NCBI RefSeq assembly: GCF_000275865.1
Contig: NZ_CM001555.1
Location: 1,285,521-1,349,520, forward strand
DNA from: Methanofollis liminatans DSM 4140
GTDB taxonomy: Archaea > Halobacteriota > Methanomicrobia > Methanomicrobiales > Methanofollaceae
Direction: 5' to 3'
DNA length: 64,000 nt
Positions within the stretch are counted from its first letter, which is position 1, and every line of letters starts with the position of its first letter. Position numbers and translations under genes: made by a program. Below, in pieces: positions 8,929-27,935 of the stretch. The notes below the pieces were generated by a model. That model was not told the origin of the DNA. It saw only the letters and a program-made list of their open reading frames with translations, and did not search any database.

Positions 8929-8948
8929 TTGAGGAGAAAGAGTGGGTG

Positions 8949-9377: not shown

Positions 9378-9442
9378 ATGCTCTCTCTTTTCCTGCTTAT
9401 TGAGATAAATGTGGTGTTTGTCGGGGCGGGATGTTCCAGCCC

Positions 9443-10357: not shown

Positions 10358-10361
10358 CTGA

Positions 10362-10814: not shown

Positions 10815-10853
10815 GATTGATTCATATGCAGAACATGAAGAAAAATAGTGGTG

Positions 10854-12935
10854 TTATGTTTCGCTGATCGCCTTGAATGCCGCCTGCATCGGATCGGAAT
10901 AGAACTCCACCCGAATTTTATCCAGCAGTTCCGGAGGTATGTTCCCGAAGTCGGCGGCATTGATCGTCGGGATGACGACCCTCTTTGCCCCGGCATCCAT
11001 GGCGACTCTCATCCTATCGCCGAGATACTCGACTCTGGCAAGTATGCCATGGAGCGTCATCTCCCCGAGGATGATCAGTCCGCCTCCCAGGGGTTTGTTT
11101 ACGATGGCCGAGAGGATGGCCACATAGAATGCAACCCCCATGTCTTCTGCTTCTTTTGCATGTCCCGGGCTCATGACTTGAATGTTCAGATCATAGCTGC
11201 CGATATCCTGTTCAAGCCCCAGTTTCTTACAGTTGAGTCTGAGATAGTTGTACGCCATCTGTACGGACTCTTTCAGTGCCTTGGAGGTCAACCCGACCAC
11301 CCGGAGTCGTCCTGATCCAGGGATGGCTGCGACCTGTATTCTAAAGAGCATCACCCTCCCGAGGGTCGGGTCCCACCCGATGCTGAAGACGTCTCCTGGA
11401 GCGAGGGGGCCATCGGGTATCAGTTTTGTCACCCCCATCTCGGAGCACTCGGCGATATACTCTTCCCCGGTTTCTTTGTCCAGATACGAGAGGTTCACCC
11501 GCGAAAACTCGATCGGGTTCATCCGCTTCAACTGTTCTTTGACTCTCCTCCTCATTTCAAGGCCGGTGCTCACGTACTCAGCCATCTCTTCCTTTGAGCA
11601 GGTGCCGTCCGGGTGGAGGAGTTTCATGAGGCCGGATACGGTCCGGACAACTGCCTTTCTGTCGCGCTGGCCGACATGGTTCCCGAATGAGAAGAATTCG
11701 TCATAGGTATCGGTATAGTTCAGGGGGCGGAGGCCGTTGTGGAAGATCTCGGCCATATAGTCGGCGACAAAACCCATGTGCTGGGTGAAATGGTCGGGTT
11801 TGAGTTTCAACATCTCCCACCCGGGAAGATAGGCGTGCCATCGGTCATGGAACGCCGTGTCGTTCCTGATCGTCTCTGGCAGGGGGGAGAAGAGGTGCGA
11901 TGTCCTGGCAATCGATTCGACGTCCCCGTCGATGTTGCCATTGAAGACGATGCCTGCTTCGGCGGAGAGGGTTCCTTTGTCGTCGCCGCGTGAGAATGAA
12001 CCCTGTTCCATGTAGCCCTTGAACATCTGCTTGTTTGTCTCGTTCTTGAAGTGCGATCCTGCCACTTCGTCGAATGCCACCAGATCGTTCTTGAGCACCA
12101 GGCCGGGTTTGTCTTTCCGGTTTTTCCATCCGAAGAGGTCAGGCACCGAGCCCTGGCCTCCGGATAATAGAATGGCATAGGGGGAGATTTCACGATATAC
12201 AAAGGATTTTCCTGTTTCACGGGGTCCCAGTTCGATGAGGTTGTAATTTTTCTCGACCATGGGGATGAGCCTGAGAAGGATGAGCAGTTTCACCCGCCAT
12301 GTAAGGTCGGGATGCGTTGGTTCGTATCCTATCGACCTCAGCAGGATGTCCACCCATTCCTCCCGCGTGAACTGGCGGCGGGCCTCGATCCATTCGTCCA
12401 TTCTGGCGCTGGCGATCTGGATGGGTTTCATGTTGGCGATGACGAAGGGACGGGTGACATTGCCGTGCACGATGTTTTCGTCATAGACGAGTTCGATGTT
12501 GGACCAGACGCCGCCGGTCAGCACACGCTCATATTTCTCGACGAAATCTTCTTCGATGTGTACCTTGTCAAGACCCGAGGTCGCAAGGTGTGCCCAGTAC
12601 TTCCCTCCCTGGTCTTTTTCATCGAATGTGACCGTCACCAGGTCGATGATCTTCATCGATCCCGATCTCTTCAGCCGCGCCTTGATCAGTTCTCCCTGGT
12701 CGGCCCTGACGACCCGTTCAGCAATGGCGCCTTTGACGAGCTGGAGACCTTCGTTGACTCCTTTCTCATCTGTTGTGGAACAGTATTTTCCCAGGAGGTA
12801 CTCCAGGACGTACACGGGGATGGAAAAGCCCACTTTTAATTTGTGGACGAGATCCTTTCTGACGACCCTGCCGGGGAATGCGGCGACGAGTTTCCTGTCG
12901 AGATCGTCGAGTTCGAAGTGTTCACCAGAATTCAT
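10854..12935 (-). CDS. brxL: BREX type 1 Lon-like protein BrxL
   Basis: 693 aa. An N-terminal domain precedes an AAA+ core with Walker A GPRETGKS (about residues 236-243) and Walker B LVAFDEVAG (about 283). The last 200 residues have the Lon fold, visible in GEMTLHGILARVEYLGDRM and AGAKRVVIPT. The protease dyad is absent: the Lon serine motif (PSAG) reads EDMG and the GGLKEK lysine motif reads EYLGDR. It is therefore expected to act as a DNA-engaging AAA+ machine rather than a protease, in line with BrxL studies. It overlaps the pglZ end by 14 bases and marks this BREX as type 1. Confidence 0.9.
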   Translation of the reverse strand: MNSGEHFELDDLDRKLVAAFPGRVVRKDLVHKLKVGFSIPVYVLEYLLGKYCSTTDEKGVNEGLQLVKGAIAERVVRADQGELIKARLKRSGSMKIIDLVTVTFDEKDQGGKYWAHLATSGLDKVHIEEDFVEKYERVLTGGVWSNIELVYDENIVHGNVTRPFVIANMKPIQIASARMDEWIEARRQFTREEWVDILLRSIGYEPTHPDLTWRVKLLILLRLIPMVEKNYNLIELGPRETGKSFVYREISPYAILLSGGQGSVPDLFGWKNRKDKPGLVLKNDLVAFDEVAGSHFKNETNKQMFKGYMEQGSFSRGDDKGTLSAEAGIVFNGNIDGDVESIARTSHLFSPLPETIRNDTAFHDRWHAYLPGWEMLKLKPDHFTQHMGFVADYMAEIFHNGLRPLNYTDTYDEFFSFGNHVGQRDRKAVVRTVSGLMKLLHPDGTCSKEEMAEYVSTGLEMRRRVKEQLKRMNPIEFSRVNLSYLDKETGEEYIAECSEMGVTKLIPDGPLAPGDVFSIGWDPTLGRVMLFRIQVAAIPGSGRLRVVGLTSKALKESVQMAYNYLRLNCKKLGLEQDIGSYDLNIQVMSPGHAKEAEDMGVAFYVAILSAIVNKPLGGGLIILGEMTLHGILARVEYLGDRMRVAMDAGAKRVVIPTINAADFGNIPPELLDKIRVEFYSDPMQAAFKAISET

Positions 12936-15417
12936 CTATTTCCACCTTGAGTTCAACCTCTTCTCTGGCCAGTATTTCTTCGTCGTCCGCATCCTGTACG
13001 ACCACAACGAGTTTCGATCCAAAGGGGGGTGCAGATGAGGCATCTACCCGAGAGAGCGCGATTGTCTGGGCCCCGCCGGCGGGTTCGATGGTCACAGCGT
13101 TATCATGGCGGAAAATAACCTTTCCGGTTTGGAGGTCTTTGATTTTCACCAGCACTTTCCGCGATAGCAGATTGGAGTCGGCGCCGATGAGTTTCTGCTG
13201 GCCTCCTGCCCCTGGCTCGACCTGTACCCTCGGCATTTCGCTTGTGATCTGTCCGACCGGTTTGAGGACGGCGTTCACCTTCTTTGCCTTCTGGGGCCAG
13301 TGGACCAGGACGACGGGGATGATGAGTTCCTGCAGGGTTGCTCCGCCGTGGAAGAAGCCGAGGCCCCCGTATGTCTTGAAGGCGTTGATGCTTCTCGGGA
13401 CCATGGCGTTCAGGTCGGAGGAGGGGACAGGGAGGGCGAGGGCGGTCTTATGGGAGAGGGCCCGGCCCACCACGGCGCGGCGTGATGTCCAGAGGCGTTC
13501 TCCTTCTGGTTTGCTCTCTTCGATCTCGTCGGGTTCGGGTTGCCAGTGGAAGAATCCGTGGTCGGTGACGATGATGATCTGTGAGTAGCCGGCATCCCTG
13601 AGTTTTCGAAGGGCGGTTGTGTAGCGGTCGAGGCTGTCCCCGGCGCCGTCCAGTTTGAGGTTTCCGTCATGGCCGGCGGTGTCGAACTCTGCGCCTTCGA
13701 CGACAAGAAGCGGCGATGAGGAGGTTGCCTTCTTCATCTTCCTGCCGTCGATGATCTCTTCGATGGAGAGGAATGTGGTGACGCCCATGGCGTCCCTGAA
13801 CCAGTTCCGCCATTGTTCGGCAATGGCGAGGTTGCCTGATTCTCCTGCGGTGACAGAGAAGGTTTTCTGGTCTGGAGAGAGGTCCACGCGGAGCGTGCGG
13901 GAGTCGACCGGGAGGGCGAAGGGTTTTCCGATGGGGGTGATGCTGGGCACCGGCGCCCGTGCGATTGCGACCTCTGCCCGTTGTTCGGGTTCGCCTTCGT
14001 TGATCTTTTCGGCGAGCCGGTGGCCGAGATCGAGGCGGAAGGCGTCGAGGAAGATGTAGGCTGTTCTGGAGGGGTTGCCGTCCAGGATGGAGAGGGCACG
14101 TTCTCCTGCTGTCGGGAGGGCTGCAAGGGCGGTCTGGTCGATTTCGAGGAGGTCTGAGAACGTTCTGCCGATGCGGTCGATGGTTCTGAGGTAGTGGCGC
14201 CTGAGCGATCCCCTGACGGTCCTGAGCACCTCGGGGAGGGAGGGGGTTTCGGTGAAGAGGATTTCTCCGGCCACGTCCAGGGTCCAGCCGCCGCCGGCGT
14301 ACCATGCGATGGCGTCGCCGGCGCGGGTCCAGGTCTTTTCGACGCCTGCGTGCATGACGAGGGGGTGGGCGACGCCGGCGAGTGAGGAGAGGTGCCGCCA
14401 GCCGACGCTGTCGGTGGCAATGCTCCCCCAGAAGCGGGCTTCGCGCTCCTGGAAGGTGGGGAGGGCGCTGTCAAGTTCTTTTGCGAGGGCCTCGACGTCG
14501 CCGATCGCGGTGAGGCGGTCCAGGTATTTTTTGAGGATGGCCTCTTCGACGGCCCGCGAACCTGCCGATGCAGGGGGCGTTGCGAGCCTTTCAGCCCAGG
14601 GGCCGAGGGAGGTGATGGCGTCCGCCTTCTTTACGGCACGCTCGAAGGAGGGGATATAGGTGATGTTCTCCTCCCACTGCCTGAGCAGGGCGAGGGCGTG
14701 TTCGCGCGGCAGGCCCGGCGGGATGATGCGGTTCTTTTCCGCCGGGGGTGAGTGGGGGGAGGCCTCGGCGGCCTCGGTGCAGAGGAGGACGGCGGTCGCC
14801 TCCCGTCGCCAGGTCTCCTCGTCCATCTGTTCGGGGTCGGGGAGGCCGAAGTCCTCTCTGGCGCGGCGGGCGAAGATCTCGAACCTGCTCTCTGACCTGA
14901 GCCGGTCGAATTCGCCGGTGCTGCCGGCGAGGACGTCCAGGATCTTCCGGTCGTTGACGAGTTCGCCTTTTGCCGAGCCGGCGGTGAAGTCTTTCCAGTC
15001 GGCCCGCGGGCTGTCGAACCGCTCGTTGACGTAGGCGGGGAGGAGGGGGATGAGTTCTTCCTCCCGGTCGCCGGGGATCTGCACCCCGTAGTCACGGAGG
15101 GCGGAGACCAGGCGGGTCTCCCAGACATGGTCGGCCTCGGGCTCGAAGACCCTGAACCAGGTGATCTCCTCCTCGGAGCGGGGAAGCCAGACGATCCGGC
15201 TCGTTCTCGGCCGGGTTGCGAAGCGGTTTCTGAGGGCGAGTTCGTGCTCGTCGGGGTCGGCCCAGAGTTCCAGGCCGTCGGCTTCGGCGGTCTTCTTCAG
15301 GAGGTCGAGCCATTCCCGGCGGGGGTCGCACCAGAGGATCCAGCCGTTGTGCTTCTGGAGGTGGGGGCGGATCCTGGAGGTGAGCCAGGCGTGGAAACTG
15401 GTGGGGGGTTCGGTCAT
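12922..15417 (-). CDS. pglZ: BREX phosphatase-fold protein PglZ
   Basis: 831 aa, the signature BREX protein of the alkaline phosphatase superfamily. The PglZ domain shows metal-site strands AYIFLDAFRLDLGHRL (about residues 450-465) and IIIVTDHGFFHW (about 613-624). PglZ is essential for BREX exclusion; its exact substrate is unsettled. A good ribosome site (AGGAGGAGAG) lies just before the ATG, between it and the dNTPase stop 12 bases upstream. The gene is separated from pglX by three genes not part of canonical BREX. Confidence 0.92.
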   Translation of the reverse strand: MTEPPTSFHAWLTSRIRPHLQKHNGWILWCDPRREWLDLLKKTAEADGLELWADPDEHELALRNRFATRPRTSRIVWLPRSEEEITWFRVFEPEADHVWETRLVSALRDYGVQIPGDREEELIPLLPAYVNERFDSPRADWKDFTAGSAKGELVNDRKILDVLAGSTGEFDRLRSESRFEIFARRAREDFGLPDPEQMDEETWRREATAVLLCTEAAEASPHSPPAEKNRIIPPGLPREHALALLRQWEENITYIPSFERAVKKADAITSLGPWAERLATPPASAGSRAVEEAILKKYLDRLTAIGDVEALAKELDSALPTFQEREARFWGSIATDSVGWRHLSSLAGVAHPLVMHAGVEKTWTRAGDAIAWYAGGGWTLDVAGEILFTETPSLPEVLRTVRGSLRRHYLRTIDRIGRTFSDLLEIDQTALAALPTAGERALSILDGNPSRTAYIFLDAFRLDLGHRLAEKINEGEPEQRAEVAIARAPVPSITPIGKPFALPVDSRTLRVDLSPDQKTFSVTAGESGNLAIAEQWRNWFRDAMGVTTFLSIEEIIDGRKMKKATSSSPLLVVEGAEFDTAGHDGNLKLDGAGDSLDRYTTALRKLRDAGYSQIIIVTDHGFFHWQPEPDEIEESKPEGERLWTSRRAVVGRALSHKTALALPVPSSDLNAMVPRSINAFKTYGGLGFFHGGATLQELIIPVVLVHWPQKAKKVNAVLKPVGQITSEMPRVQVEPGAGGQQKLIGADSNLLSRKVLVKIKDLQTGKVIFRHDNAVTIEPAGGAQTIALSRVDASSAPPFGSKLVVVVQDADDEEILAREEVELKVEIDEFW

Positions 15418-15429
15418 TCTCTCTCCTCC

Positions 15430-16842
15430 TTAAGCACCTGTATCCTCTTCAAGGTACAGTTTCTTGTACTCGGTGAAGGCATAGAGATCGGTCATCGATG
15501 CGATATAGTCGCTTAATACACGCAAGAATTTCGGGTCTGATATTATTTTATGCCGGCATTCTTCGAATTCCCGGTCATTGAGATATCTGATCGTTTCATG
15601 GTGGAGGTCCAGGTTTTTCAGATATTTTTTTACCTCCGGGACTTCACAGACCGCCGTGTACTTCTTCAAGACGCTGTCGGGCAGCTGTTTCGGGTTGGTC
15701 AGATATGCCTTGATGATCTGGCGCAGGATAAACTTGGCTTTCCCATTTTCACGGTGAATTTTGTAGTTGTTAATGATAAACCGTTCCTGCAGATCTTTGA
15801 GCCGTGCGAATAAAATATTCTTTTCAAGAATTGTTTCACTGGCGAGATCTTCTGTGATCGGATAATATTCTGGTTCTGGATATGGGAGTTTCGCTTTCCT
15901 TTTTAAATAATTCTCCATGTTTTGTTTTATTGTTTCGACGGACTCAATAACGATAAGACTAATAATCCAGCTGGTAAATTCTTTGAAATAGTGCGTGTCA
16001 ATCCAGGGTTTGCAATGGTCTGATTTTTTGATGAAGGGTTGGTCTTCAATTCCTTTCAAGAGACCTTGATCAATTAACTCACCGATGAGTTCCAGAATCA
16101 GTTTTTTGCTATTATAGTCTCCTTCAATCGCGTCCTCGATGTCATGGCAGACCTGCGCAATTTCATCGGACAGACTGATAATCTGCCCCTCTATCGAAGC
16201 GGAGAATGGTTGCTCGAAGTGCAGTTCCGGCAGGTTGGTAATCGTTTCATACTGGATAAAATCTGGTTCTTCCTTAAAGCACAATTTTGAATGTTTTAAG
16301 ATGCCCTCAAGGACGGGATAACTGATGTTCAATCCAGAAAATGAGCAATATCCGTTTTCAACATCCATCAGCACTCTGACGCTCTGGTAGTTGTGCTTGA
16401 ACCCGATGCCAACCTTTTCGGGATCTATGTTGAATTTGTTCAGGACTTTGCGCTCGTCCTGCCCTGTTAAAAGTTCATGGATAACATATTCGCCAATATG
16501 GCCGAAGGGGGTATGGCCGACATCGTGCCCCAGTGCAATCGCCTCGGTGAGGTCTTCGTTCACACCGACCTGACGTGCGATTGTCCGGGCGATCTGCGTT
16601 ACCTCAAGGGTGTGTGTCAGCCGTGTTCTGATGTGCTCATTCATCGTTCCGGTGAAGCAGACCTGCGTCTTGTGCATCAGTCTTCTGAAGGACTTGCAAT
16701 AGAGGATCCTGTCTTTATCATGCTGGAACGGGCTCCGCTCATCCTGAGAATGGAGTGTAGGAAACTCTTTTTTCGGTTCTGTGAACTTCCGTTTCACGCA
16801 CTCAGAGTCGTTCCGGATGGCAAGGGGGTGGAGTTTTGCCAT
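15430..16842 (-). CDS. dGTPase-like HD-domain dNTP triphosphohydrolase inserted in BREX
   Basis: 470 aa. It has the Dgt layout: RSPFQHDKDRILY, FRRLMHKTQV, then the HD motif residues in RTRLTHTLEV (His77) and AIALGHDVGHTPFGH (His106-Asp107), with a later conserved Asp in SDEIAQVCHDIEDA. Such enzymes hydrolyse dNTPs to nucleoside and triphosphate; in bacteria, dGTPase and dCTP deaminase homologues starve phages of dNTPs. Start chosen at the ATG preceded by GGTGATG; a longer start at 16860 is possible. It sits between the zinc-hook ATPase and pglZ, both on the same strand, and is more AT-rich than pglZ. Enzymatic family is clear; the antiviral role is inferred from location. Confidence 0.85.
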   Translation of the reverse strand: MAKLHPLAIRNDSECVKRKFTEPKKEFPTLHSQDERSPFQHDKDRILYCKSFRRLMHKTQVCFTGTMNEHIRTRLTHTLEVTQIARTIARQVGVNEDLTEAIALGHDVGHTPFGHIGEYVIHELLTGQDERKVLNKFNIDPEKVGIGFKHNYQSVRVLMDVENGYCSFSGLNISYPVLEGILKHSKLCFKEEPDFIQYETITNLPELHFEQPFSASIEGQIISLSDEIAQVCHDIEDAIEGDYNSKKLILELIGELIDQGLLKGIEDQPFIKKSDHCKPWIDTHYFKEFTSWIISLIVIESVETIKQNMENYLKRKAKLPYPEPEYYPITEDLASETILEKNILFARLKDLQERFIINNYKIHRENGKAKFILRQIIKAYLTNPKQLPDSVLKKYTAVCEVPEVKKYLKNLDLHHETIRYLNDREFEECRHKIISDPKFLRVLSDYIASMTDLYAFTEYKKLYLEEDTGA

Positions 16843-16945
16843 CGTCATCACCATCCGCACGCAGACTGCTCTTTTTTCATGAATTTGCTGTTGTTCATTT
16901 GTGGTCTCTTCAGATTTTTGATATCGTAATAACTAGTGGCATCCA

Positions 16946-19345
16946 TCATTCACCCTTTTTATATCGGATTTTTTCGCATTTACAGGACCATAAATTGTCA
17001 ATCTCACTAATTCTTCTAATAAATTCATTGCAATGTTCACAAAATACACCTTTCCGAAAACCAATTACTGCATCACAAAATTCCCGTGCTTCGCTTTCAG
17101 TCAAATTTGTTGCCCATGAGTTCCAGTGAGCACCTGCCCAGTTCCGCATGGTTCGTGTTTTTTCGATTGTATCAAGACATTTCTTGTTAGAGGAATAAAA
17201 ACTGTTAAATTCTTTTGATTTTGAATAAAATGCATTCCAGAGGGGATCTATTGTATATTTACTTGAAAGACTAAATCGGACGCTAACATTTAGATTGTTG
17301 CAGAGGTTCTGAAGAATTTCCTCCAGCACTCGACCTGCTTTTATCGCTTTATCCTGAGGGTTGGATTTTCCAGCGTTTTTTGATATTAACCATTCATAAT
17401 CATTCAGATGATCTCCGAATATCGGACCTGTATCAATATTCCAATCTGAAATTTTGTAATACTTTAACTTCTTACTCCTCATATGACGTTTTGAAGCCTG
17501 TTTTAAATATTCAAACCATAGAAGATCATGTGTTGTAATTACAATTTGGTGATCGTTGAATTTTTCAAAGATCATTTCTGCTGTTTTTCGACGATGACCA
17601 GCATCTACACTTTGTAGTACATCATCCAACACAAGCAATGAAAGATTAGGATTTTGGTTATACTGGAACCTTCGAATCGCTAAAAATATACAAAGCCCGA
17701 GTGAATCAACATGTCCCTCGCTATAGTGACCGCGGGGATCGTCTTCTGTCCCATAAAATTCGCTGATGATCTTTATACTTCCTGATCCTCCATCTGGGAG
17801 CTCAAATGCTGGAGAGCCTATTGATTCGCCAGGGTGGATATACTGATAATATTCATTGGTCACTTTTCCTATCTCAGACATTAGAATTTTAATTGCTTCT
17901 TTGCGGGCTTTCGTTGCATATTCAGATATTTGCGTTATTTGTTCGGAAACAACTTTAGTATTATTTTTTGTATTTATGGAGCCTTGAATAGTCGAATGAT
18001 GAAGTAATACGGCTGCGATCGAATTTTTCAGGTCTATTAATTTTTTATATCGATCAATATCTGGTGATGAAGCGCATCTCTCATCAATCACTTCTTTCAT
18101 TGAATGAATGATTGCATTTCCATCAAATTCGAGTAATCGAGCAAGTTCTTGTTCTATTTTTTCAGGCTCACTGATTTTACTATTACTTGCTACTATCTCC
18201 TCAATTACCTTCTGAAAGGTATCATACCTGTCGATCAACGGTACTTTCAGCAGTTCATCCCAAGTTCTACGAGTTTTCTCCAAAAATTTAGCATAATTTG
18301 AAATCGCCTGAAAAAAAAGATTATATTTTGCATTACAAATATTTTTAGATGCAATGATGGACTTATGTTCGTTAATTTTTTGTTGAACAAATTTCTGAAT
18401 CTCATCTGCGTTTATAGGGGAGTTGCAGAGGGGGCATTGTTCGAGAGCATCTTCTTTTATCCAACGAAGGCCGTCCTGAAGTACTTTCTCATATAATTGT
18501 CCTTTTAATGTCCCAGATTCAATTTTAAATTCCTTAGAAGCACTGTAATACTCTTCTTCGGATCTTATAACTTCTGAATACGAAGGAGCATTGGCGAGTT
18601 CTTTGGAAAAATCAATGATACCTTGCCATTGAGAAATATTTTGAAAAGATCTCAAATCTGCATCGATAATCCCTACACATACCTCAAACTCCTCGAAATC
18701 TGTGACTTCCCTTATTCCGGCGTCCTTCAAGCAGATATTAAATTGTTCAATCAAGCACTCCTTTGTTATTGGGATTTTGGGGTCAATTTTAAGGATTTTT
18801 CGAATTTCTTGTTTATTTTGAGATATTTTATCGTCTAATTCCTTCACCCCTTTCTCTAAATCTTTTTTATGATCGATCAACTTTTGTTCAAACGCCACAT
18901 ATCGATCAACATTTAGAAAACCTTCAATCGCCTTGTATCGCTGCGCTGGTTTTGCTTCAATAAAATCGAGGAGTATTCGACGTCGAAGGATGAATTTACT
19001 TTCTTGAGAGGCTTTCAAGAATTTTTGAACATCTTTAGGGAAAGACTCGGTACTTTTTCCAAGAGAGACCGTTTCATCCTTATTGCCGTCAGTTAGAATC
19101 ATTTGAATTTCAGGATTTGAATCAGAGCGAATATGAGTCCCCTGCTTTTTCCATGAGAGCTCCTGAGCACCGATGTCAAGGGATGAGCACTTCCCCGTTA
19201 GCACTTTTTCAAGAGCATCGATATATGAACTCTTACCTGTGCCATTATCTCCACAGATTACTGCCCCACCTGTTCCAAATACTACATCCGGCCCATCAAT
19301 GATCCCGCGACAATTCTTCACTTTCAGCCTCTTGAGTCGAAGCAT
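16946..19345 (-). CDS. Zinc-hook ABC ATPase with HEPN-like C-terminal domain, RloC-like, inserted in BREX
   Basis: 799 aa, AT-rich. Rad50/RloC architecture: Walker A CGDNGTGKSS (about residues 31-40), a long helical region interrupted by a zinc hook CPLC (about 300-303), the signature around YSEGHVDSLG, and Walker B LLVLDDVLQSVD (about 570-580). The C terminus continues past the ATPase. It has GRVLEEIL (about 668-675) and TMRNWAGAHW (about 731-740), an RxxxE plus Rx5H pattern like HEPN ribonucleases. A terminal zinc ribbon follows (CEHC, CKC). RloC combines the same ATPase type with an anticodon nuclease, so an RNA-cutting effector is a reasonable hypothesis, not proven. Start chosen at the ATG with GAGGAGGG upstream; it overlaps the preceding small gene by 50 bases. 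Confidence 0.75.
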   Translation of the reverse strand: MLRLKRLKVKNCRGIIDGPDVVFGTGGAVICGDNGTGKSSYIDALEKVLTGKCSSLDIGAQELSWKKQGTHIRSDSNPEIQMILTDGNKDETVSLGKSTESFPKDVQKFLKASQESKFILRRRILLDFIEAKPAQRYKAIEGFLNVDRYVAFEQKLIDHKKDLEKGVKELDDKISQNKQEIRKILKIDPKIPITKECLIEQFNICLKDAGIREVTDFEEFEVCVGIIDADLRSFQNISQWQGIIDFSKELANAPSYSEVIRSEEEYYSASKEFKIESGTLKGQLYEKVLQDGLRWIKEDALEQCPLCNSPINADEIQKFVQQKINEHKSIIASKNICNAKYNLFFQAISNYAKFLEKTRRTWDELLKVPLIDRYDTFQKVIEEIVASNSKISEPEKIEQELARLLEFDGNAIIHSMKEVIDERCASSPDIDRYKKLIDLKNSIAAVLLHHSTIQGSINTKNNTKVVSEQITQISEYATKARKEAIKILMSEIGKVTNEYYQYIHPGESIGSPAFELPDGGSGSIKIISEFYGTEDDPRGHYSEGHVDSLGLCIFLAIRRFQYNQNPNLSLLVLDDVLQSVDAGHRRKTAEMIFEKFNDHQIVITTHDLLWFEYLKQASKRHMRSKKLKYYKISDWNIDTGPIFGDHLNDYEWLISKNAGKSNPQDKAIKAGRVLEEILQNLCNNLNVSVRFSLSSKYTIDPLWNAFYSKSKEFNSFYSSNKKCLDTIEKTRTMRNWAGAHWNSWATNLTESEAREFCDAVIGFRKGVFCEHCNEFIRRISEIDNLWSCKCEKIRYKKGE

Positions 19346-19559
19346 GGATACCCTCCTCAATCATCTTGGATAATGGTGTGATATCTTCCGGCACACCATC
19401 TTTGAGTAAATCAAGCATTTTATCCTTCCATTCTGGTGCAAGAGACTGATCCTGGTGAATAAGGCGAAGGAGTTCCTTCGCCGCGAGTGAATTGATATCT
19501 CTGAGATCTTCTATCGAGTATGACCTGCTCTCATCAGATGGGGTTTCATCATCACTCAT
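19296..19559 (-). CDS. 87-aa acidic helical protein between pglX and the zinc-hook ATPase
   Basis: Acidic, predicted mostly helical, beginning MSDDETPSDESRSYSIEDL. No family recognised. GGAGGG lies seven bases before the chosen ATG, while an ATG six bases earlier abuts the GGAGGG directly and is less likely. Its 3' end overlaps the ATPase gene start, so translation of the two is coupled. It may be a small partner or inhibitor of the ATPase; that is inference from coupling only. Confidence 0.6.
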   Translation of the reverse strand: MSDDETPSDESRSYSIEDLRDINSLAAKELLRLIHQDQSLAPEWKDKMLDLLKDGVPEDITPLSKMIEEGIHASTQEAESEELSRDH

Positions 19560-19576: not shown

Positions 19577-22500
19577 TCACCACCACCCGCACTTCGGCAG
19601 TTTCCCTTCCCTGCACCACCGGCGCTCGTCCGACCGCCACTCGGCCCGGTCGGAGACGGCCTTCTCCAGGTCCTTCTTTGCGATCACGTCGGCCGCGAGC
19701 AGCCCGGCCTTCTGGAGGGGGACGACGTTCACCCGCACGCCGTCGTTGATGTCAGGGATGTAGCTCCGCTCCTGCCGCAGGAAGGCCTCCCTGTCGGCCG
19801 GGGCCGGGCGCGTGCCGTCGATGGAGCACCAGGAGTCGAGGGGCTCGCTCTTTGCGATCTTCTCCAGGGTCTTGCTCGAAAACCCGTTCTCCGCAACGTC
19901 GGAGAGGGTCGCCCCGAAGGTCTTCAGTTCGGCGATCAGCCCGTCGAGTTCGCGGAAGCGCCGCTCCTGCACCTCGGTTCGTGAGGCAGGGGGGATGCCC
20001 TCGATGCCCCGCATCTCGGTCTCGTAGCGCTGCCGCAGGGGGCCGACATACTGGTTCTTGATCTTGTGGAGGGTGTCCTCGTCGAGTTTGTGGTAGTAGG
20101 CCAGGCAGGCGAACGCCGGCTGCCGCTTCTTCGTGAACTTGCCGCTCTGCACCTGCCAGGCGATGGGGCGCTTCTTGAACTGCTGGGTGTGGTGCTTGAA
20201 GAACTCGGTGTGGAGCCAGTCTTCGAGACTCTTGCCCATCACCTCCTCGAACTCCCGCTCGATGGCGGCAGCCGAACCGCCGGGGAACTCCGCGGCGATC
20301 CGCCCCCTGACCCGCTCCAGCAGGGTCGCCTCCCCGGAACCCGGGGTGAGCGGGATGATCCCGTCGGCATCGGCCCAATCCGGAACCGCTTCGCCGGCCT
20401 CGATCTGCTTCGGCCACCTATGGCCGAGCATGCGGAGGACCATCACGGTGAAGCGGTCCTCGGTGATCCGCCGCTCCTCCGGGATGCACCGCCAGCACTC
20501 CTCCTCGATCCCCTCCTTCAGGAGCCAGTAGACGGAGATGGGGTGGACCTGTAACTTCTGGGAGAGCTCTTCAAGGAAGGTCTCGGCCGGGATCGGGATG
20601 TAGGCCCCGGCGACCGCCTCCTCCTCGCCGTCGCCAGAGGTGCTGTCGTCCTCGATCTCGATCTTCGCCCCCGGCCCGCCCTCGTAGAGGGTGCGGAGGT
20701 TCGCCTTCAGGGTGGCGAGGTCGTTGGGGGAGAGGTTCCGGCGCTCGTGTTCGGTGAGATCGTCGAGGACTTCCTGCGGGATCTCGGGGAGGCCGTCCGG
20801 GAGCGGGGGGAGGGCGTCGTAGGCGGCGATGAGGGGGTGCCACCCTGAAGGCAAACCTGTTTCTGTATAGATTTGATCTTTAATGTTCTGAAGATCTAGC
20901 ACTCCTAATAACTTGGTCTCATTGAAGCCCTCAATGGTATGTAGTATAGCATCTAGATGATAATAGGCCCAATAGGAATTTAATGTGCTACTAGGATTAA
21001 ATTTGACATCTCTAAGATCTTGTTCAACGTCTTCTGATTTACAGTAACAGATTAATTTAGATAACTTGTTGTCTAATGCGGTTTCGTTTGGGCAGATAGG
21101 GAGCTGCTTGACGTATCCTGTCTTAAAATGTAAATTAGGGCTTATTGCACGAAGCAATATTGTTACCAGATAGGTATTAAAATATATACCTAATGTATTT
21201 AGCTGCGTTCGCGTAATAAACACGCCAGGTCCTGTATCCGAAAAGATTGAATTTTTTAGCAAATACCGCGCACTAAAAGCACCATTTGAAATATCGGAAT
21301 ACGTTAAGCCATCAGCGAAATATAACTCTTCATTCCTTACAAGCCAATCGGTATTTCCTTTCAGGTAGGGATATTTTTCAGAGATTTGGGACTTAATCTT
21401 AGTACCTTTGTAATTATAGTCAACAATCCAATAATTGAATCCCATCCAGCGGGAGTATCCTCCACCTTTTGAATACATGAACCAACGATTATTGTCAATC
21501 ACTGCTTCCCATTGATATCGTACAAACCTAGAGTCATTTCTTGTTCCAAGCCCTTCGCTAGTAGTAATTTGATGACTTAATCGATTGCTTGTGGATAAAT
21601 GCAATAACAAAGGTTCGGGGAGCCAATAGATAAGTGAATAAAAGGGGATGTGAAGAAATAATTTTTGAAGTATGCGATAGGTCTGATTATTGCCTCTATT
21701 TCGCAGTAATTCTGCTTTCTTTTCTGAGCAGCCTCCTGCAATAGCCCTAGTTGCTGTTAGATGGTGGTTCTCTTTTGGTCCACTGTTAGTTAAAGTAAAA
21801 AGAACGACACTTACAACCTCGCCTCCGATTTCTCCAAAAGCTTTCGGTCCAAGTTGGGCGATTGTTTCGATACTGGTCTGTCTAATTAGGCCTGAAAATT
21901 CTTCCTTTTGCGCACTTTCCGTCCTTTTTTCAGTAATTGCTCGAAGGTTTTCATAACTTTGCAAAAATAACCAGGATTGTTGTGTGACCATAGCCACTTT
22001 GCCACTAAGTTTTGAAAGTTTCAGATTTCGGAGTATAAATGCTGCAAAAAGATCGCGTTTTCCTTTGTCATAATTGGTATCTAGGTATTTTTTCACCACC
22101 AATGACATGGTTCCTGATCCCATATACGGCGGATTCGCCGCCACTACATCGTATCGCTTCGACAGCAACTCAAACAGCCGAACACCCTTCCCGGCGTTCT
22201 GCGAAAAGAAGGCGTTTACGAGATCCGCCACCTCCGCCTCTGCGGTGAAGTGGTCGGCGAGGCGCTCGACCACGCCGTCCTTCCAGGTCTCCCACTCCTC
22301 GTCGGTCGTCGGGGCGGCGAACTCTCCGGTGGAGAGCGTCGTCTGCCCGCCGAGACGGGTGCGGAGGCTGCGGAGTGCCCGCTCCACCGGCTCCTCGATC
22401 TGGAGGAGGGAGCCGAGTTCGTCGGCATGGGCGAGGCCCTCGAAGATCGATTCGAGGGCCGGGGCGAGGGGGGCGTCTTCGGGGTGCTTGGCGAGGAAGG

Positions 22501-23698
22501 CCTGGAGGTGGTCCTTTCCCTTCGGCAGGCGGATGTTAGTGGCGATGATATTCTTCGGCGTGCCCGAGAAGTCGAAGACCCGCTCGGCCGCCTTCATCCA
22601 GAGGGCCGCACGGGCGATCTGCACCGCCCGCTCGTCGATATCGATCCCGTAGAGGTTGCGGGCGAGGATCTTCTTGCAGATCGTCTCCGGGTCGGTGTAC
22701 TTCCCCTCGGCCTCGTACATCTGGTAGAAGAGGTCGAAGGCCTCGATCAGGAAGTGCCCCGAGCCGCAGGCCGGGTCCAGGAAGGTGATATTCTCCACGT
22801 TCTTCCTGCGCACCGGCGCCCGATCGGCGTCCTTCACGTAGTACTCCCAGCCCCCGGAGAGATCCGAGTCCGGGTACATCCCCATCCAGGTCGCGCCCAG
22901 CGAGTTCTGGACCAGGAACTTCACCATATAGGGCTCGGTGTAGAGCTGCGTCGCCGGGATGATATCGGCACCCGCGATCTTCGCCTTCTTCGTCCTGACC
23001 TTCTCGAAGACCCGGTCCTTCTCCTCGGTGTTCCAGTACTGATACGCCCACCCGAGGGCATCCGGTGCCGCAAACACCTCGTCCGTCGCGGTGCCGGAGT
23101 TGTTCACCGCCTCCGTCCCCGAGAGGAGGGCGATGCACCGCTTCAGCGCCGCCACCGACGGCCGCAGCGCAACCCCGGCCGCCTTCGGGTCGAAGAGCAG
23201 CGGCAGGTGCTTTGCATGGAACGAAAACGCATCCTGGAGCATCGCAAAAAGCCCCCCGTCCTCGCCGGTGCAGACCTCCGGGTGGCGCTGCGCCAGCCGG
23301 TGGTGGGCAAGCGACCGCCCGCCATAGACCTCCTTCGTCGCCACCACACCATCGATGAGATCGCGGGCCTCCATGCACCTGAGCACCAGCAGGCGGTTCG
23401 CCCAGGTGTACGCCGTCTCCCGCACAAACTCCTCGATCGCATCCCGCCGCGCGATCCCCGCCTCCTCCCGCAGGGCAAGATAGGCATCGATCACCGCGCG
23501 GGCGTGCCGGTCCTCAGGGGAGCGGAACGGCACCTCACCGGCCGGAACCGGCTCCCGGTCCCACCAGACCCCCAGCGCATTCATCCGCTCTTCGAGATCG
23601 CCGCCATGCCAGTTCCCGTGCTCGTCGTACCTCCCCTCCAGCAGGTGCCTGAACTCGAGGACAAGCGGCTTGAGGATCTTCTTCTGCTCTGCCTCCAT
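19577..23698 (-). CDS. pglX: BREX adenine-specific DNA methyltransferase PglX
   Basis: 1373 aa. SAM-binding motif FLDPACGSGHFL (about residues 301-312) and catalytic NPPY in VVAANPPYMG (about 519-525) identify an N6-adenine methyltransferase. PglX marks host DNA at a non-palindromic site in BREX. The start is the ATG two bases after the brxC stop; an upstream frame extension is ignored. The segment coding residues about 523-949 (20850-22130) is strikingly AT-rich (about 35-42% GC by eye) inside a gene otherwise about 65-70% GC. That segment corresponds to the target-recognition part downstream of NPPY, suggesting exchange of the specificity region. The gene is longer than many PglX proteins (about 1200 aa). 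Confidence 0.92.
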   Translation of the reverse strand: MEAEQKKILKPLVLEFRHLLEGRYDEHGNWHGGDLEERMNALGVWWDREPVPAGEVPFRSPEDRHARAVIDAYLALREEAGIARRDAIEEFVRETAYTWANRLLVLRCMEARDLIDGVVATKEVYGGRSLAHHRLAQRHPEVCTGEDGGLFAMLQDAFSFHAKHLPLLFDPKAAGVALRPSVAALKRCIALLSGTEAVNNSGTATDEVFAAPDALGWAYQYWNTEEKDRVFEKVRTKKAKIAGADIIPATQLYTEPYMVKFLVQNSLGATWMGMYPDSDLSGGWEYYVKDADRAPVRRKNVENITFLDPACGSGHFLIEAFDLFYQMYEAEGKYTDPETICKKILARNLYGIDIDERAVQIARAALWMKAAERVFDFSGTPKNIIATNIRLPKGKDHLQAFLAKHPEDAPLAPALESIFEGLAHADELGSLLQIEEPVERALRSLRTRLGGQTTLSTGEFAAPTTDEEWETWKDGVVERLADHFTAEAEVADLVNAFFSQNAGKGVRLFELLSKRYDVVAANPPYMGSGTMSLVVKKYLDTNYDKGKRDLFAAFILRNLKLSKLSGKVAMVTQQSWLFLQSYENLRAITEKRTESAQKEEFSGLIRQTSIETIAQLGPKAFGEIGGEVVSVVLFTLTNSGPKENHHLTATRAIAGGCSEKKAELLRNRGNNQTYRILQKLFLHIPFYSLIYWLPEPLLLHLSTSNRLSHQITTSEGLGTRNDSRFVRYQWEAVIDNNRWFMYSKGGGYSRWMGFNYWIVDYNYKGTKIKSQISEKYPYLKGNTDWLVRNEELYFADGLTYSDISNGAFSARYLLKNSIFSDTGPGVFITRTQLNTLGIYFNTYLVTILLRAISPNLHFKTGYVKQLPICPNETALDNKLSKLICYCKSEDVEQDLRDVKFNPSSTLNSYWAYYHLDAILHTIEGFNETKLLGVLDLQNIKDQIYTETGLPSGWHPLIAAYDALPPLPDGLPEIPQEVLDDLTEHERRNLSPNDLATLKANLRTLYEGGPGAKIEIEDDSTSGDGEEEAVAGAYIPIPAETFLEELSQKLQVHPISVYWLLKEGIEEECWRCIPEERRITEDRFTVMVLRMLGHRWPKQIEAGEAVPDWADADGIIPLTPGSGEATLLERVRGRIAAEFPGGSAAAIEREFEEVMGKSLEDWLHTEFFKHHTQQFKKRPIAWQVQSGKFTKKRQPAFACLAYYHKLDEDTLHKIKNQYVGPLRQRYETEMRGIEGIPPASRTEVQERRFRELDGLIAELKTFGATLSDVAENGFSSKTLEKIAKSEPLDSWCSIDGTRPAPADREAFLRQERSYIPDINDGVRVNVVPLQKAGLLAADVIAKKDLEKAVSDRAEWRSDERRWCREGKLPKCGWW

Positions 23699-23700
23699 GG

Positions 23701-26700
23701 TTACTCGAACTCCACCATATCGTAGCCTTCGTTGATCTTCGCCCGCACACGGGCATCGATATCGTCCCTGAGGCGCTCCCACTCGGCAATGCTCCTGACG
23801 CGCTTCCCTGACACCAGGGACGTCAGGGAGAGGCGCACCTTCTGGCTGGGGACACTCACTCCTCCCTTCTCTATCGCCTTCTCCCGCTCGATCCTGGCGA
23901 CCTCGGCATCGATCTTCATCTGCAGATCCGCCACCGCCTTCCCTGCACGCGACGGCAGGGTCGCCACCTGCGCCGGGATCGAACACTCCTCGATCTCAGA
24001 GCGCAAATGCTCCAGAGGCGGCCTCCACTTCTCTGCAAGCCCGGCGTCCAGATCCCTCTCCGCAAGGTTCGTCGGCAGGGCGGCCAGACCCTCCTCCAGG
24101 ACCTCCCGCGCCGACTCCTTCCAGCCGGCCACCAGCTCCTTCACCTCCAGCTCAGCCTGCTTCTGGGTGGCGAGCAGGCGTTTCCAGGCCTCCGGGTCGG
24201 TGAACGACGCCTTCTCCACCGCCGCATTCCAGGCCGACACCATCTCCCTGACACTGCTGCTCTCATCCGTATGGTAGGATACCGCTTCCATCTGCCCCTT
24301 CAGCGCCCGAAGACGCGTAAACGCATCCCCATTTTTCTCAACAAACGCGTCGGCAGCGCATATCGCGTCATGCCCGGCGGCAAACCCCTCGCGGTTACCT
24401 GCAATCTCACGGACCCGGTGCACCGGGTTTGTCATCCCGGAAAGCGCCGTCCACGCCTCCTTCCCCTTCGTAAACGCAGCAGAAAGGGGCATCCCCGACC
24501 CCCTCGCCCAGAGTTCGACACGGTGCGCCCTCTCAATCAGCGCATCCGCAAGAGACCCCGCCGCTTCGGCAAGAGCCGCCGGCGTCTCCTCGATCCGGCG
24601 GCTCTTCGCAAGATTGATCAGCACGGACCTCACCTCGGTCAGCATCTCCGGCGGGATCGTCGTCTCCTCCAGCTCCAGCTCCGACTTTTTGAAGTGCGAC
24701 GACACCCGCATGGCATCCTGGAGATCCTGGTCGTCAGGGTTCGTGTACACCTTCTTGTTCAGGACCACCTTCACGCTGCCCGCCCTGGCCATCGCCGCGA
24801 CACCCACGCGGACGGCATTGGGATCCCAGCCGAAAGGCGGCTCTTCAAAATAATCCAGCATCTCCTTCCCCAACGCCCTGCGGCCCTGCGTCTGCTCTCC
24901 GGCAAGGTACGTCCTGATCGCATCGATCAGAGGGCTCTGCGGATTGAGCGTCCCGGTCTGGTCATACAGTGCGAGCGCCTTCACATCCGCCGAAACGCCC
25001 GTCTTCCCTGCCAGCACATCCCGGATCGCCTGCTGGTCATTGGAGATTCTCACCGGCACGCGGTCAAAGTTCGTATAAATCTTCGGCCAGAACTCGGCCA
25101 TCACCGAGAGCAGGCCATCTCCCGCACTCTGGCTCGACGGCAGATCCAGCGTCCGTGAAGCGCCCCTGAAGACCACCGTACCCGACCGGATCCCGGCCCT
25201 CAACCCATCGACAACCCTCTTCTGCAACTTCGGCAGATCGATGCCTTCCCGGTCCCTGGCCAGTTTCCGGGCGTCCTCGGATTTATGGGGGTCCTGCTTC
25301 CACCGGTCGATCACATCCTTCATCGCAATATACCGGGTCAGGTCCTGCTCGAACTCGGGCACACGCCCCGAAAGGAAAAAGATCGTGTTCCGCTCATCAG
25401 AATGGAGGCTGTCAGACTGCAGATCCTGAACCGTCGCGCCCCCCACCCGCTCCAGAGGGGTGATCATCTTCAGCGTTACCGCACCCGACGTCCCGCCGAC
25501 CCTCTTATGATCCACCTCCAGGGAAAACGAGAACTCCTGGCTCTTGAAACTCACCGTATTGGACCCGAGCCACTTCCGCCAGTTTGATTCGCTGATAAAC
25601 AAACGGCCGAACTGCTCCTCGCGAATCCCCTGCCCCATCTGGGCCTCGACCGTGGTCACCTCATCCTCAAACGTCCGGCGCTCACCGGTCAGGAACTCAT
25701 ACTCCTCACCGATCCTGGCGACAAGCCCGGCCTTCATCAACCGTTCAAGCTCAGGCCTGACACGCGCAATCGCATCAGAGAGGTCATCATCCACGTCCCG
25801 AATGGTCAGGCGGGCGACATTATCGATCGTCCTCGGGATATACTCCAGTTCCCTGACAAGGAAAAGCACCTCTGCAACCGACGCCGTAAACCCGTTTGCA
25901 TCAGGCACCACCTTCGAGATCCGTGAAATATCGGTCCGCACATCCGGGCTGACCTCGCCCTCCCCTGAGAGATTATGATAGATCTCATCGAAACGCACGA
26001 GCACACCGGGCTCCATCTCCAGGTACCTGACCCGGCCCGCACGCAGGACATCCTGCGTGATCGCCAGCAGCGTCCTGGTGGACCCGCTCATCTGCTCGCC
26101 CCGTCCACCCCGCGAACGGAGCGACTTCACAATATCAGGGATCAGGTGCACCTGATAGGGCAGGAAGGGATAATACGTGACAAAAGAATCCTCCGAACAA
26201 TCCGGCAACACCTGGAGGGCGTTGGAGAGTTCGCCGATACCCTTCAGGTTTCCGCTCCCGCACCTCTCGTACAGGCTCTGCAAAACCCGCCTACCCTCCG
26301 TTCGCTTCCTGAGCAGCCGGTTCTCAAGGACCTGCTCGATATTCTCCGTTGTGAGAGCCGGCTTGAACCTGAACCGCCCCTCGATCTTTTTCATATCGCC
26401 GTCAAGGGCGCGGGCTTCCTTGTAAATCGCCCCCATATCCCCGTGCGTCGTGACAGCAACCCAGATCCGGCCCTGCCCCTTGAGCGCCGCCTCCTCGACA
26501 AACGCCTGCAGCCGCGCAAGACGGCCATTATTGTTCTCGATCCACTGCCCGGTCTCATCCATTACCCACATGAACCGTTGCGGCTTCCCTCTCTCCCTTT
26601 CCAGGCGCTCCAGGTCATCAAGGACGGTATCGACAAGGGTGGACACATTGATGATCGCACCGGCCTCGGCCTCGCTCAGCGCCTCCTTCACATCCTCCGG

Positions 26701-27369: not shown

Positions 27370-27935
27370 AAGAGATCTCCCCGGTACATGAACTCGTCTC
27401 TCCGGTCAAGGAAACGATAATGTCTCGGCCCGGTGAGCGCCCCGGGAATCAGGACAATAACCGGACAATCGAGTGATAGTTCTGCATCATTCCACAGGCT
27501 CTGCATGACATCCCATGGACCCGACGCAGGATAAAGAGCAGAAATATGTTCAATACTCAGAACTGGTTTTCCAGAACTCTCTTCCGTCATCCTGAGCCTG
27601 ACTTCATCGGCAATTGCGCTCACCCAGAGCCGGCTCAGGTCCTCCTGTGCGCTGACCCCCCACTCCCTGTCAGTCAGGGATTCGACAACATTATCGACGC
27701 CGATATCGGAGAGGACAGACTGTGTGACAGTAAGCACATCGACCGTTTTCACATCGATATCAGGCTGCAACGCCCGCGCCTGCGTGTGCCACTCCCTGAG
27801 GACTGCCACCTCTGCAGAGACAGGATAGACAACCGCGAGAAAAGGAACGCCGGTCTTCCTCCCGATGAAATCGTAACGCGTCTGGATACGGGTGATCGCC
27901 TCCCCGATTTTCCATTTCCAATCGTTATGCGTCAT
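27366..27935 (-). CDS. brxB: BREX protein BrxB (DUF1788)
   Basis: 189 aa from the ATG at 27935, which overlaps the brxA stop (ATGA) and has GGAGAG nine bases upstream. A start 15 bases earlier is possible but less well placed. The sequence matches DUF1788: RYDFIGRKTGVPFLAVVYPV and DCPVIVLIPGALTGPRHYRF near the C terminus. Small core component of BREX of unknown biochemical role. Confidence 0.9.
   Translation of the reverse strand: MTHNDWKWKIGEAITRIQTRYDFIGRKTGVPFLAVVYPVSAEVAVLREWHTQARALQPDIDVKTVDVLTVTQSVLSDIGVDNVVESLTDREWGVSAQEDLSRLWVSAIADEVRLRMTEESSGKPVLSIEHISALYPASGPWDVMQSLWNDAELSLDCPVIVLIPGALTGPRHYRFLDRRDEFMYRGDLL

What the first reader, a model, noticed from the sequence alone, without database searches (positions are those of the whole stretch)
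15430..19559. Three-gene module (87-aa protein, zinc-hook ATPase with HEPN-like end, dNTPase) embedded inside a type 1 BREX locus
brxABC-pglX and pglZ-brxL are contiguous in canonical BREX. Here three coupled genes on the same strand are set between pglX and pglZ. The ATPase has Rad50/RloC features (CPLC hook, P-loop, LDD Walker B), a C-terminal RxxxE...Rx5H HEPN-like pattern and a zinc ribbon. The neighbour is a Dgt-type dNTP hydrolase with an intact HD site. An RNA-cutting plus dNTP-draining pair controlled by, or backing up, BREX would be a combination I do not know to be described. The module is more AT-rich than the surrounding BREX genes.
Basis: partly seen in the sequence, partly recalled or inferred. 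Interest (0 to 1): 0.82.

Follow-up and report, generated by a model that had tools for sequence, protein, structure and literature searches.

The report
BREX locus carrying stacked backup effectors
In this methane-producing archaeon, an anti-virus gene cluster called BREX holds two apparently separately acquired add-ons between two of its core genes: an enzyme predicted to destroy DNA building blocks, and a small protein paired with an ATPase whose end is predicted to cut RNA, which together would likely shut an infected cell down if the main defence fails.

Summary

But it is not one three-gene module. A relative (L078) has the same BREX locus with the dNTPase (87% identical) and no ATPase pair. 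There the pglX end overlaps the dNTPase start; in the window a near-copy of that overlap stands on each side of the ATPase pair, which therefore sits exactly in a former pglX-dNTPase junction.

Small gene plus ATPase is a recurring two-gene unit of archaea and bacteria, sometimes beside restriction systems, found in the pglX-pglZ gap in five places on the tree's evidence by several entries. A long Dgt occupies the same gap in two further archaeal BREX loci of another branch. Of 38 evaluable archaeal gaps, 30 hold genes. The exact trio was found nowhere else; one Clostridiales restriction locus has distant versions. RNA cutting, dNTP depletion and control by BREX are untested inference.

The parts
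27932..28756 (-). brxA (274 aa)
   Evidence: PF08849 92.1 bits, above cut-off 23
27366..27950 (-). brxB (194 aa), weak match
   Evidence: PADLOC BrxB E 0.0013; position between brxA and brxC
23701..27369 (-). brxC (1222 aa)
   Evidence: NF033441 615.6 bits, above cut-off 400
19577..23905 (-). pglX adenine methyltransferase (open frame runs to 23986; the start is not fixed)
   Evidence: NF033452 641.9 bits, above cut-off 500
19577..19592 (-). left copy of the 16-nt junction sequence, end of pglX (GTGCGGGTGGTGGTGA)
   Evidence: the same 16 nt is the pglX-end/dNTPase-start overlap in L078
19296..19559 (-). small partner gene, 87 aa, no match in Pfam, PADLOC or NCBIfam
   Evidence: relatives at the same place in L002 (59%), L003 (35%), L081 (32%); 7 database relatives P0189-P0195
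16946..19342 (-). Rad50-like zinc-hook ABC ATPase with C-terminal HEPN-type domain (798 aa; overlaps the small gene by 47 nt)
16946..17425 (-). HEPN-type domain plus zinc ribbon of the ATPase (residues 640-798)
16845..16860 (-). right copy of the junction sequence (GTGCGGATGGTGATGA), first codons of the dNTPase
   Evidence: 14 of 16 identical to the left copy
15430..16860 (-). Dgt-family dNTP triphosphohydrolase (476 aa); the genome has another dgt elsewhere
   Evidence: TIGR01353 202.6 bits, cut-off 152.35; H83, H112, D113, D232 present; other dgt at G000:C1:339528, 42% over residues 12-246
12922..15417 (-). pglZ (831 aa), divergent
   Evidence: PADLOC PglZ E 2.6e-28; below Pfam and NCBIfam cut-offs
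10854..12935 (-). brxL (693 aa)
   Evidence: TIGR02653 757.6 bits, above cut-off 628.25

Best explanation
This is a type 1 BREX locus whose pglX-pglZ gap holds two apparently separately acquired add-ons, a Dgt dNTPase and then a small-protein/Rad50-like ATPase pair, which are predicted to act as backup cell-shutdown effectors when BREX itself is beaten. In a relative's BREX the dNTPase sits directly against pglX, and in the window the ATPase pair lies exactly in that junction (shown by sequence). The likely working: the ATPase dimer, held idle with the small protein, senses foreign or damaged DNA or a blocked BREX complex, and ATP-driven movement of head, coil and hook frees the C-terminal HEPN domain to cut RNA, most likely tRNA as in RloC and PrrC (inferred). 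The dNTPase would drain dNTPs and stall viral replication (inferred from family). Whether BREX proteins contact or control either add-on is untested.
For: Natural with/without pair: L078 has brxA (cut by the fetched end)-brxB-brxC-pglX-dgt-pglZ-brxL, 69-88% identical, without small/ATPase; its pglX end overlaps the dgt start, and that 16-nt sequence stands on both sides of the pair in the window, 14 of 16 identical. The same gap holds the ATPase in Halohasta litorea (L040), L118, L124 and L117 = Halorhabdus plasmid pHTIA (annotated BREX-5 pglX, small CDS, ATPase, pglZ), and a dgt in L089 and L090. Among close haloarchaeal BREX loci the gap is empty (L151, L153), has the ATPase pair (L040, L118) or other genes (L152, L154). 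Quick trees need, by starred branches, at least 4 changes of the BREX label among ATPases (5 BREX rows) and 2 among dgts (4 BREX rows). HEPN. dNTPase. A short ORF lies at the ATPase 5' end in 56 of 60 loci (chance background is high, see against), and a small CDS is annotated overlapping the ATPase start in 6 of 6 plasmid records opened, of 22 matching.
Against: No other genome was found with this same trio. ATPase and such a dgt do not co-occur beyond the window's genome in 392 phylum genomes. In 52 of 65 fetched ATPase loci the queries used found no BREX or restriction genes (several are short contigs), so the pair can probably work without BREX. Foldseek alone gave no significant HEPN match, and VIA-align warns that helical bundles can reach such Z by arrangement alone. 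The Rx4-6H arginine is in only 11 of 38 of the wider family. On a stricter mechanical count a small ORF ends near the start of 46 of 55 ATPases but also of 73 of 222 other large genes. Homology of the window's small protein to the distant small proteins is only hinted (hhalign E 0.0052 and 0.0022 against two groups, 0.16 and 0.42 against two others; its reversed control 0.15). A label change on a tree can be loss as well as gain. No activity is shown for any of the three proteins.
Confidence: 0.6

Rival explanations
1. The pglX-pglZ gap is only a convenient landing site: the small/ATPase pair and the dNTPase are independent stand-alone defences that share the operon's transcription but have no functional link to BREX or to each other.
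For: On plasmids of Roseibium, Mesorhizobium, Fibrella and Aliiroseovarius no methyltransferase or BREX gene is annotated within about 9 kb of the pair (the gene tables are incomplete). The gap holds many unrelated gene types in other archaea (AlbA/Schlafen, OLD with UvrD, AAA_21 with RloB, GmrSD). The window's two add-ons are not associated across genomes.
Against: Both families are in this gap in more than one lineage, and 77 of 78 gap ORFs of 120 aa or more are on the BREX strand (my tally), which suggests selection for being in the BREX operon, though shared transcription alone could explain this.
Confidence: 0.3
2. One co-adapted three-gene module: small protein, ATPase and dNTPase work as one machine.
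For: Same strand, tightly packed; one Clostridiales locus (L021) carries an Eco57I-type methyltransferase, a 51-aa ORF, a 25% ATPase and, after a 190-aa, a MazG-like and a Schlafen-helicase gene, a 33% dgt on one strand.
Against: L078 has the dNTPase without the pair; L040, L117, L118 and L124 have the pair in BREX without a dgt; GC differs, 37% against 45%; the pglX-end copy kept at the dNTPase start shows that pglX and dNTPase were once adjacent.
Confidence: 0.06
3. The dNTPase is a regulator rather than an effector: it sets a dNTP signal that gates the ATPase (PrrC is tuned by dTTP), so its loss or inhibition would change when the RNase fires.
For: PrrC activation involves dTTP (passages of PMC2610378 and PMC3710099); a MazG-like nucleotide hydrolase also lies near relatives of this ATPase in L021 and L033.
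Against: A dgt relative was found by the queries in only 1 of the 65 distinct ATPase loci (L021); in the passages read, dTTP sensing is given for PrrC, not for RloC, the nearer analogue.
Confidence: 0.06
4. The C-terminal domain is a non-catalytic RNA- or nucleotide-binding HEPN, and the pair acts on DNA as a Rad50/SMC-like clamp, as in Lamassu or Wadjet.
For: Foldseek's best matches for the whole protein are Rad50/SMC, and Lamassu LmuB is listed too; the Rx4-6H arginine is replaced in 27 of 38 wider-family members.
Against: In the window's clade R-N-x4-H is in 54 of 56 (2 gaps), with E674 in 56 of 56 and R671 in 51 of 56.
Confidence: 0.12

Closest known systems
RloC (Davidov & Kaufmann 2008, PMC2610378; passages read)
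   Same: Rad50-like zinc-hook ABC ATPase with C-terminal ACNase (HEPN) domain; 658-897 aa; sometimes in restriction loci (8 of 73)
   Different: Here a small gene overlaps the ATPase start; triad-like residues are R-x2-E-x64-H (R-x3-E-x36-52-H in RloC); extra C-terminal zinc ribbon; the window protein has no AAA_13 match at 0.01; many archaeal members, whereas RloC was in 1 of 45 archaeal genomes
PrrC in the EcoprrI type Ic restriction locus (passages of PMC3710099 and PMC2610378)
   Same: ABC-HEPN nuclease embedded in a modification-restriction operon as second-line defence
   Different: PrrC is about half the size, lacks the zinc-hook insert, sits with hsdMSR rather than BREX, and is silenced by the linked restriction enzyme
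RloC and pEK499_p136 HEPN proteins in Pgl operons (Anantharaman 2013, PMC3710099; passages read)
   Same: HEPN proteins of these families inside an operon of Pgl (BREX-related) genes were noted there 'in a few instances'
   Different: No small partner, dNTPase, slot census or empty-site comparison in the passages read
Backup nuclease effectors in BREX (Rakesh & Krishnan 2026, PMC12839542; abstract, part 1 of 2 of section 35 and term searches read)
   Same: Effectors inside core BREX loci: HEPN, PIN, Schlafen, OLD/TOPRIM (PARIS), GmrSD
   Different: HEPN described as standalone, MNT-fused or DUF499-fused; dNTP, dGTPase, triphosphohydrolase and RloC do not occur in the main text; supplements not seen
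Anti-phage dGTPases (NF041026; dNTP depletion as phage defence is recalled, not read here)
   Same: Dgt family with HD active site
   Different: Window protein scores 149 bits against a cut-off of 400; sits in BREX
CxC/DndD ABC ATPase with DndE (PMC10853773; passages read)
   Same: ABC ATPase (CxC form with Zn-hook) obligately paired with a small gene in modification-linked defence
   Different: Hook is CPLC, not CxC; the partner here is 87 aa and not shown to be a ribbon-helix-helix protein; HEPN end instead of a separate nuclease gene

Membership tests
Type 1 BREX | PglX methyltransferase of the BREX-1 model | tested here: met
   NF033452 641.9 bits, cut-off 500
Type 1 BREX | BrxA, BrxC, BrxL in the order brxA-(B)-C-pglX ... 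pglZ-brxL | tested here: met
   PF08849, NF033441, TIGR02653 all above cut-off
Type 1 BREX | BREX-1 PglZ model | tested here: not met
   NF033450 101.4 bits against 400; PADLOC PglZ match E 2.6e-28: a divergent PglZ. The locus is filed as type 1 on its other genes
Type 1 BREX | BrxB | tested here: inconclusive
   PADLOC BrxB E 0.0013 only
HEPN superfamily (ATPase C-terminus) | HEPN helical fold | tested here: met
HEPN superfamily (ATPase C-terminus) | Rx4-6H motif, polar residue after R | tested here: met
   R733-N734-x4-H739 in 54 of 56, 2 gaps; definition from PMC3710099. In the wider alignment R is in 11 of 38
HEPN superfamily (ATPase C-terminus) | metal-independent RNase activity | not testable with these tools
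   needs an assay
RloC | Rad50-like ATPase with CXXC zinc hook | tested here: met
   C303-P-L-C306, both cysteines 56 of 56; Foldseek best matches Rad50/SMC
RloC | R-x3-E-x36-52-H triad | tested here: not met
   R671-x2-E674-x64-H739; the alternative E675 gives R-x3-E but is E in only 37 of 56 and the spacer stays too long
RloC | Pfam AAA_13 (the PrrC/RloC family, by recall) | tested here: not met
   no AAA_13 match in the window protein at E 0.01; 5 of 56 aligned sequences match
Dgt dNTP triphosphohydrolase | family score and HD metal site | tested here: met
   TIGR01353 202.6 bits, cut-off 152.35; H83, H112, D113, D232 aligned with 2dqb
Anti-phage dGTPase (NF041026) | family score | tested here: not met
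   149 bits against cut-off 400
MADS mad3 | mad3 model with the other mad genes nearby | tested here: inconclusive
   best PADLOC hit of the ATPase, E 1.8e-14, one stretch of residues 8-617 over 328 of 374 profile positions; no other mad model among the rows shown for the nine proteins scanned (lists capped at 25)
PARIS/Gabija OLD-type ATPases | OLD ABC ATPase with TOPRIM | tested here: not met
   no TOPRIM match in the window ATPase or its two insert neighbours at E 0.01; GajA/AriA scores of at most 24.9 bits

The most novel reading that the evidence does not exclude
The pglX-pglZ junction of archaeal BREX is an exchangeable effector dock: BREX acts as the sensor, and whatever occupies the dock is the kill switch it releases when its own restriction is blocked. 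In this locus two orthogonal switches are stacked, an RNA cutter (with a dedicated small adaptor between BREX and the ATPase) and a dNTP drain, so that translation and replication are stopped together and an escape virus would have to beat BREX plus two unrelated shutdowns.
Probability: 0.2. Interest if true: 0.82.

Novelty: new variant of a known kind. Interest (0 to 1): 0.57.

Why it matters
How BREX restricts viruses is still unsettled, and backup effectors inside BREX loci have been catalogued but rarely tested. Here nature supplies matched loci that differ mainly in what fills one gap: BREX plus dNTPase with and without the ATPase pair in two methanogens, and closely related haloarchaeal BREX loci with an empty gap, the ATPase pair or other cargo. 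That makes the question 'does BREX control its embedded effectors' directly testable by swapping the gap's contents. It also points to a widespread small-protein/Rad50-HEPN pair that crosses archaea and bacteria (the window's small protein matches no model in Pfam, NCBIfam or PADLOC), and it adds dNTP hydrolases to the kinds of gene found inside BREX.

Tried and rejected
The single-protein scan of genome contigs found no relative; the alignment scan found 50 loci. A scan of viral contigs with A1 gave three loci, one broad (24% over residues 34-697, E 3e-40) and two matching only the first 51 residues: little sign that the pair is mainly virus-borne. The dNTPase against plasmids found 24 and 26 records, mostly alphaproteobacterial, whose contexts were not opened. 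Foldseek with the HEPN-domain model gave no significant match (best E 1.3); the fold rests on VIA-align plus the motif. I considered that the small protein might be a DndE-like partner and found nothing for it. The paper on ABC ATPase classification (10.1093/nar/gkaa726) is not held, so a prior description of the small/ATPase pair there cannot be excluded. The search for MADS papers returned nothing relevant in the 8 rows shown of 23. One paper holding BREX, RloC and dGTPase (PMC13249269, a Vibrio pangenome) was seen in the listing only.

Census bookkeeping: one search gave 66 BrxL rows. Six fragment rows were not used. Of the other 60, 12 (L173-L184) had no pglZ match and were left out; of the 48 examined there, 10 lacked readable pglX and pglZ on one strand; 38 were evaluable. 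In 13 of the 38 the pglX frame is under 800 aa (one, L147, cut by its contig end), so part of what fills the gap there is probably the other half of a split methyltransferase (inference); 12 of these 13 are among the 30 occupied gaps. Of the 25 with a pglX frame of 1000 aa or more, 7 are empty and 18 occupied (my tally). The gap ORFs are longest-ORF picks of my script, not curated genes.

Tree caveats: both trees are 'quick' ones with SH-aLRT support, long branches and skewed compositions flagged. For the ATPase's BREX label 38 of 500 shuffles needed as few changes, for the dgt's 4 of 500; database rows without known context were not counted.

Full report
What is there. The window lies in a single-contig archaeal genome of 2.48 Mb, 98.4% complete; the closest named relatives of its proteins are Methanoculleus and Methanocalculus. 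On the minus strand runs a type 1 BREX operon: brxA, brxB, brxC, pglX, [three extra genes], pglZ, brxL. The extra genes are an 87-aa protein with no family match, a 798-aa ABC ATPase and a 476-aa Dgt protein. pglX stops 17 nt before the small gene; the small gene and the ATPase overlap by 47 nt; 85 nt separate ATPase and dNTPase; 12 nt separate dNTPase and pglZ (from the coordinates).

The small gene. Relatives at the same place lie in L002 (59% identity), L003 (35%) and L081 (32%). Of 60 evaluable ATPase loci, 56 have a short same-strand ORF ending -30 to +75 nt from the ATPase start; a stricter mechanical count gives 46 of 55 against 73 of 222 other large genes, so presence alone is only about 2.5-fold over background. 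By profile comparison two distant groups resemble the main archaeal group (E 1.5e-5 and 4.3e-5); the window's group and a fourth are only hinted (0.0052, 0.0056), and the window's group does not match two others (0.16, 0.42); reversed controls gave 0.019-0.27. In 6 of 6 plasmid records opened (of 22 with matches) an annotated CDS of 61-81 aa overlaps the ATPase start by 4-26 nt. I take small gene + ATPase as one two-gene unit.

The dNTPase. It passes the dGTPase subfamily model and keeps H83, H112, D113 and D232. It differs from the common Dgt of the order: 129 of 150 relatives have some match at E 0.001, and 16 sampled ones (390-457 aa) form a separate, fully supported clade in the tree. The window's genome has another dgt too (G000:C1:339528, 42% over residues 12-246; not placed in the tree). 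Matches at E 1e-40 or better are in 7 of 392 phylum genomes.

Two units, not one. There the end of pglX and the start of the dNTPase share GTGCGGGTGGTGGTGA. In the window this stretch ends pglX (19592-19577) and, as GTGCGGATGGTGATGA, also starts the dNTPase (16860-16845), with 2716 nt holding the ATPase pair between. So pglX and dNTPase were once adjacent and the pair lies in their junction, by insertion here or by clean excision in the L078 line. GC fits two origins: 37.0% for the ATPase, 45.3% and 45.4% for the two dNTPases, 52.4-63.7% for the window's BREX genes.

The gap as a slot. In the phylum sample, 59 of 392 genomes have BrxL. In 38 loci pglX and pglZ could be read on one strand (bookkeeping under Tried and rejected): 8 have gaps under 200 nt and 30 hold ORFs, and by my tally 77 of 78 ORFs of at least 120 aa are on the BREX strand. 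Thirteen of the 38 have a short pglX frame, so part of the content there is probably the rest of the methyltransferase. The ATPase is in 3 of 38 (window, L118, L124) and a dgt in 3 of 38 (window, L089, L090). Outside this count the pair is also between pglX and pglZ in Halohasta litorea (L040) and on Halorhabdus tiamatea pHTIA (L117), annotated BREX-5, and a dgt in L078. Close haloarchaeal BREX loci have the gap empty (L151, L153; 7 and 6 nt), filled by the pair (L040, L118) or by other genes (L152, L154). Other cargo seen among ten proteins tested includes AlbA/Schlafen, AAA_21 with RloB, OLD with UvrD, and GmrSD; three had no family. Quick trees need at least 4 changes of the BREX label among ATPases (5 BREX rows) and 2 among dNTPases (4 BREX rows).

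Other homes of the pair. Of 65 distinct fetched ATPase loci (67 less two duplicates, some fragmentary), 4 are in BREX gaps, 6 have hsdM/hsdR relatives within the fetched flanks (up to about 10 kb) and 3 have Eco57I-type methyltransferases beside them (with for two of these three); in the other 52 these queries found nothing. L081 adds a type I locus, and on a Halobacterium noricense plasmid the pair lies beside DUF499 and DUF1156 genes. Others neighbour GmrSD (L002), PIN (L004, L005) or AbiE (L006). L021, from a Clostridiales bacterium, has methyltransferase, 51-aa ORF, ATPase (25%), unknown, MazG-like, Schlafen-type helicase and dgt (33%) on one strand: the only other locus examined with ATPase and dNTPase together.

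How it likely works. By analogy with PrrC and RloC (PMC2610378 and PMC3710099, passages read), the ATPase would keep the HEPN nuclease idle and release it on a DNA or anti-restriction signal; the small partner is the obvious candidate for restraint or signal input. The dNTPase would lower dNTPs. Both would halt viral growth at the cost of the cell, a backup to BREX. All of this paragraph is inference.

Novelty. HEPN proteins of the RloC family in Pgl operons were noted in 2013, and BREX backup nucleases were catalogued in 2026 (part 1 of 2 of that section). I found no mention of a dNTPase in BREX: the 2026 main text lacks dNTP, dGTPase and triphosphohydrolase, one search returned nothing, and of 12 papers holding both 'dGTPase' and 'BREX' the 11 listed show nothing on it by title or start of abstract (not opened). 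The small/ATPase pair was not seen in the listings or in the passages read of three of those papers, but a key classification paper is not held.

Verdict. A real and well-anchored find, less exotic than proposed as a trio, more useful as a natural swap experiment.

Noticed in passing
window 4059-6576, + strand: PARIS-like pair: AAA_21/AriA-type ATPase (530 aa) followed by a DUF4435/AriB-type protein (310 aa, PADLOC AriB E 3.1e-16), AT-rich.
   Followed up: partly
window 15-2548, + strand: Protein matching PADLOC REase_II models (E 5.7e-17) coupled to a McrC-family protein (PF10117, 246 bits): possibly a McrBC-like restriction locus.
   Followed up: no
window 32567-40300, + strand: Wadjet type III-like genes: JetD3 (E 1.4e-89) and JetC3 (E 3.8e-133).
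   Followed up: no
window 41292-42818, + strand: Possible short Argonaute-like protein (PADLOC pAgo E 1.9e-14) right after a 212-aa ORF.
   Followed up: no
window 8949-10814, - strand: DUF365, DUF5655/NucS-like (PADLOC PDC-S18, E 1.1e-141) and EVE-domain genes follow brxL; L078 has two ORFs of 149 and 142 aa right after brxL, near the sizes of the EVE and DUF365 proteins.
   Followed up: partly
window 29017-31689, - strand: Helicase with HEAT repeats (best PADLOC match PbeA, E 2.5e-55) upstream of brxA, possibly part of the same defence island.
   Followed up: no
window 21001-22000: A 38% GC stretch inside pglX (neighbouring kilobases 61-62%), within a gap of DNA similarity to L078, which suggests exchange of the target-recognition part.
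   Followed up: no
L021 12989-13324 and L033 3995-4312: MazG-like nucleotide hydrolase genes near relatives of this ATPase, one in a bacterium and one in Methanobrevibacter: a second kind of nucleotide hydrolase in such loci.
   Followed up: partly
L091 6500-9807: A dgt relative close to a TIR-domain gene; no BREX gene found by the queries.
   Followed up: no
L186 (Halobacterium noricense plasmid) 1545-11502: The small/ATPase pair stands next to DUF499, DUF1156 and helicase genes, which look like a BREX-related (DUF499) system.
   Followed up: no
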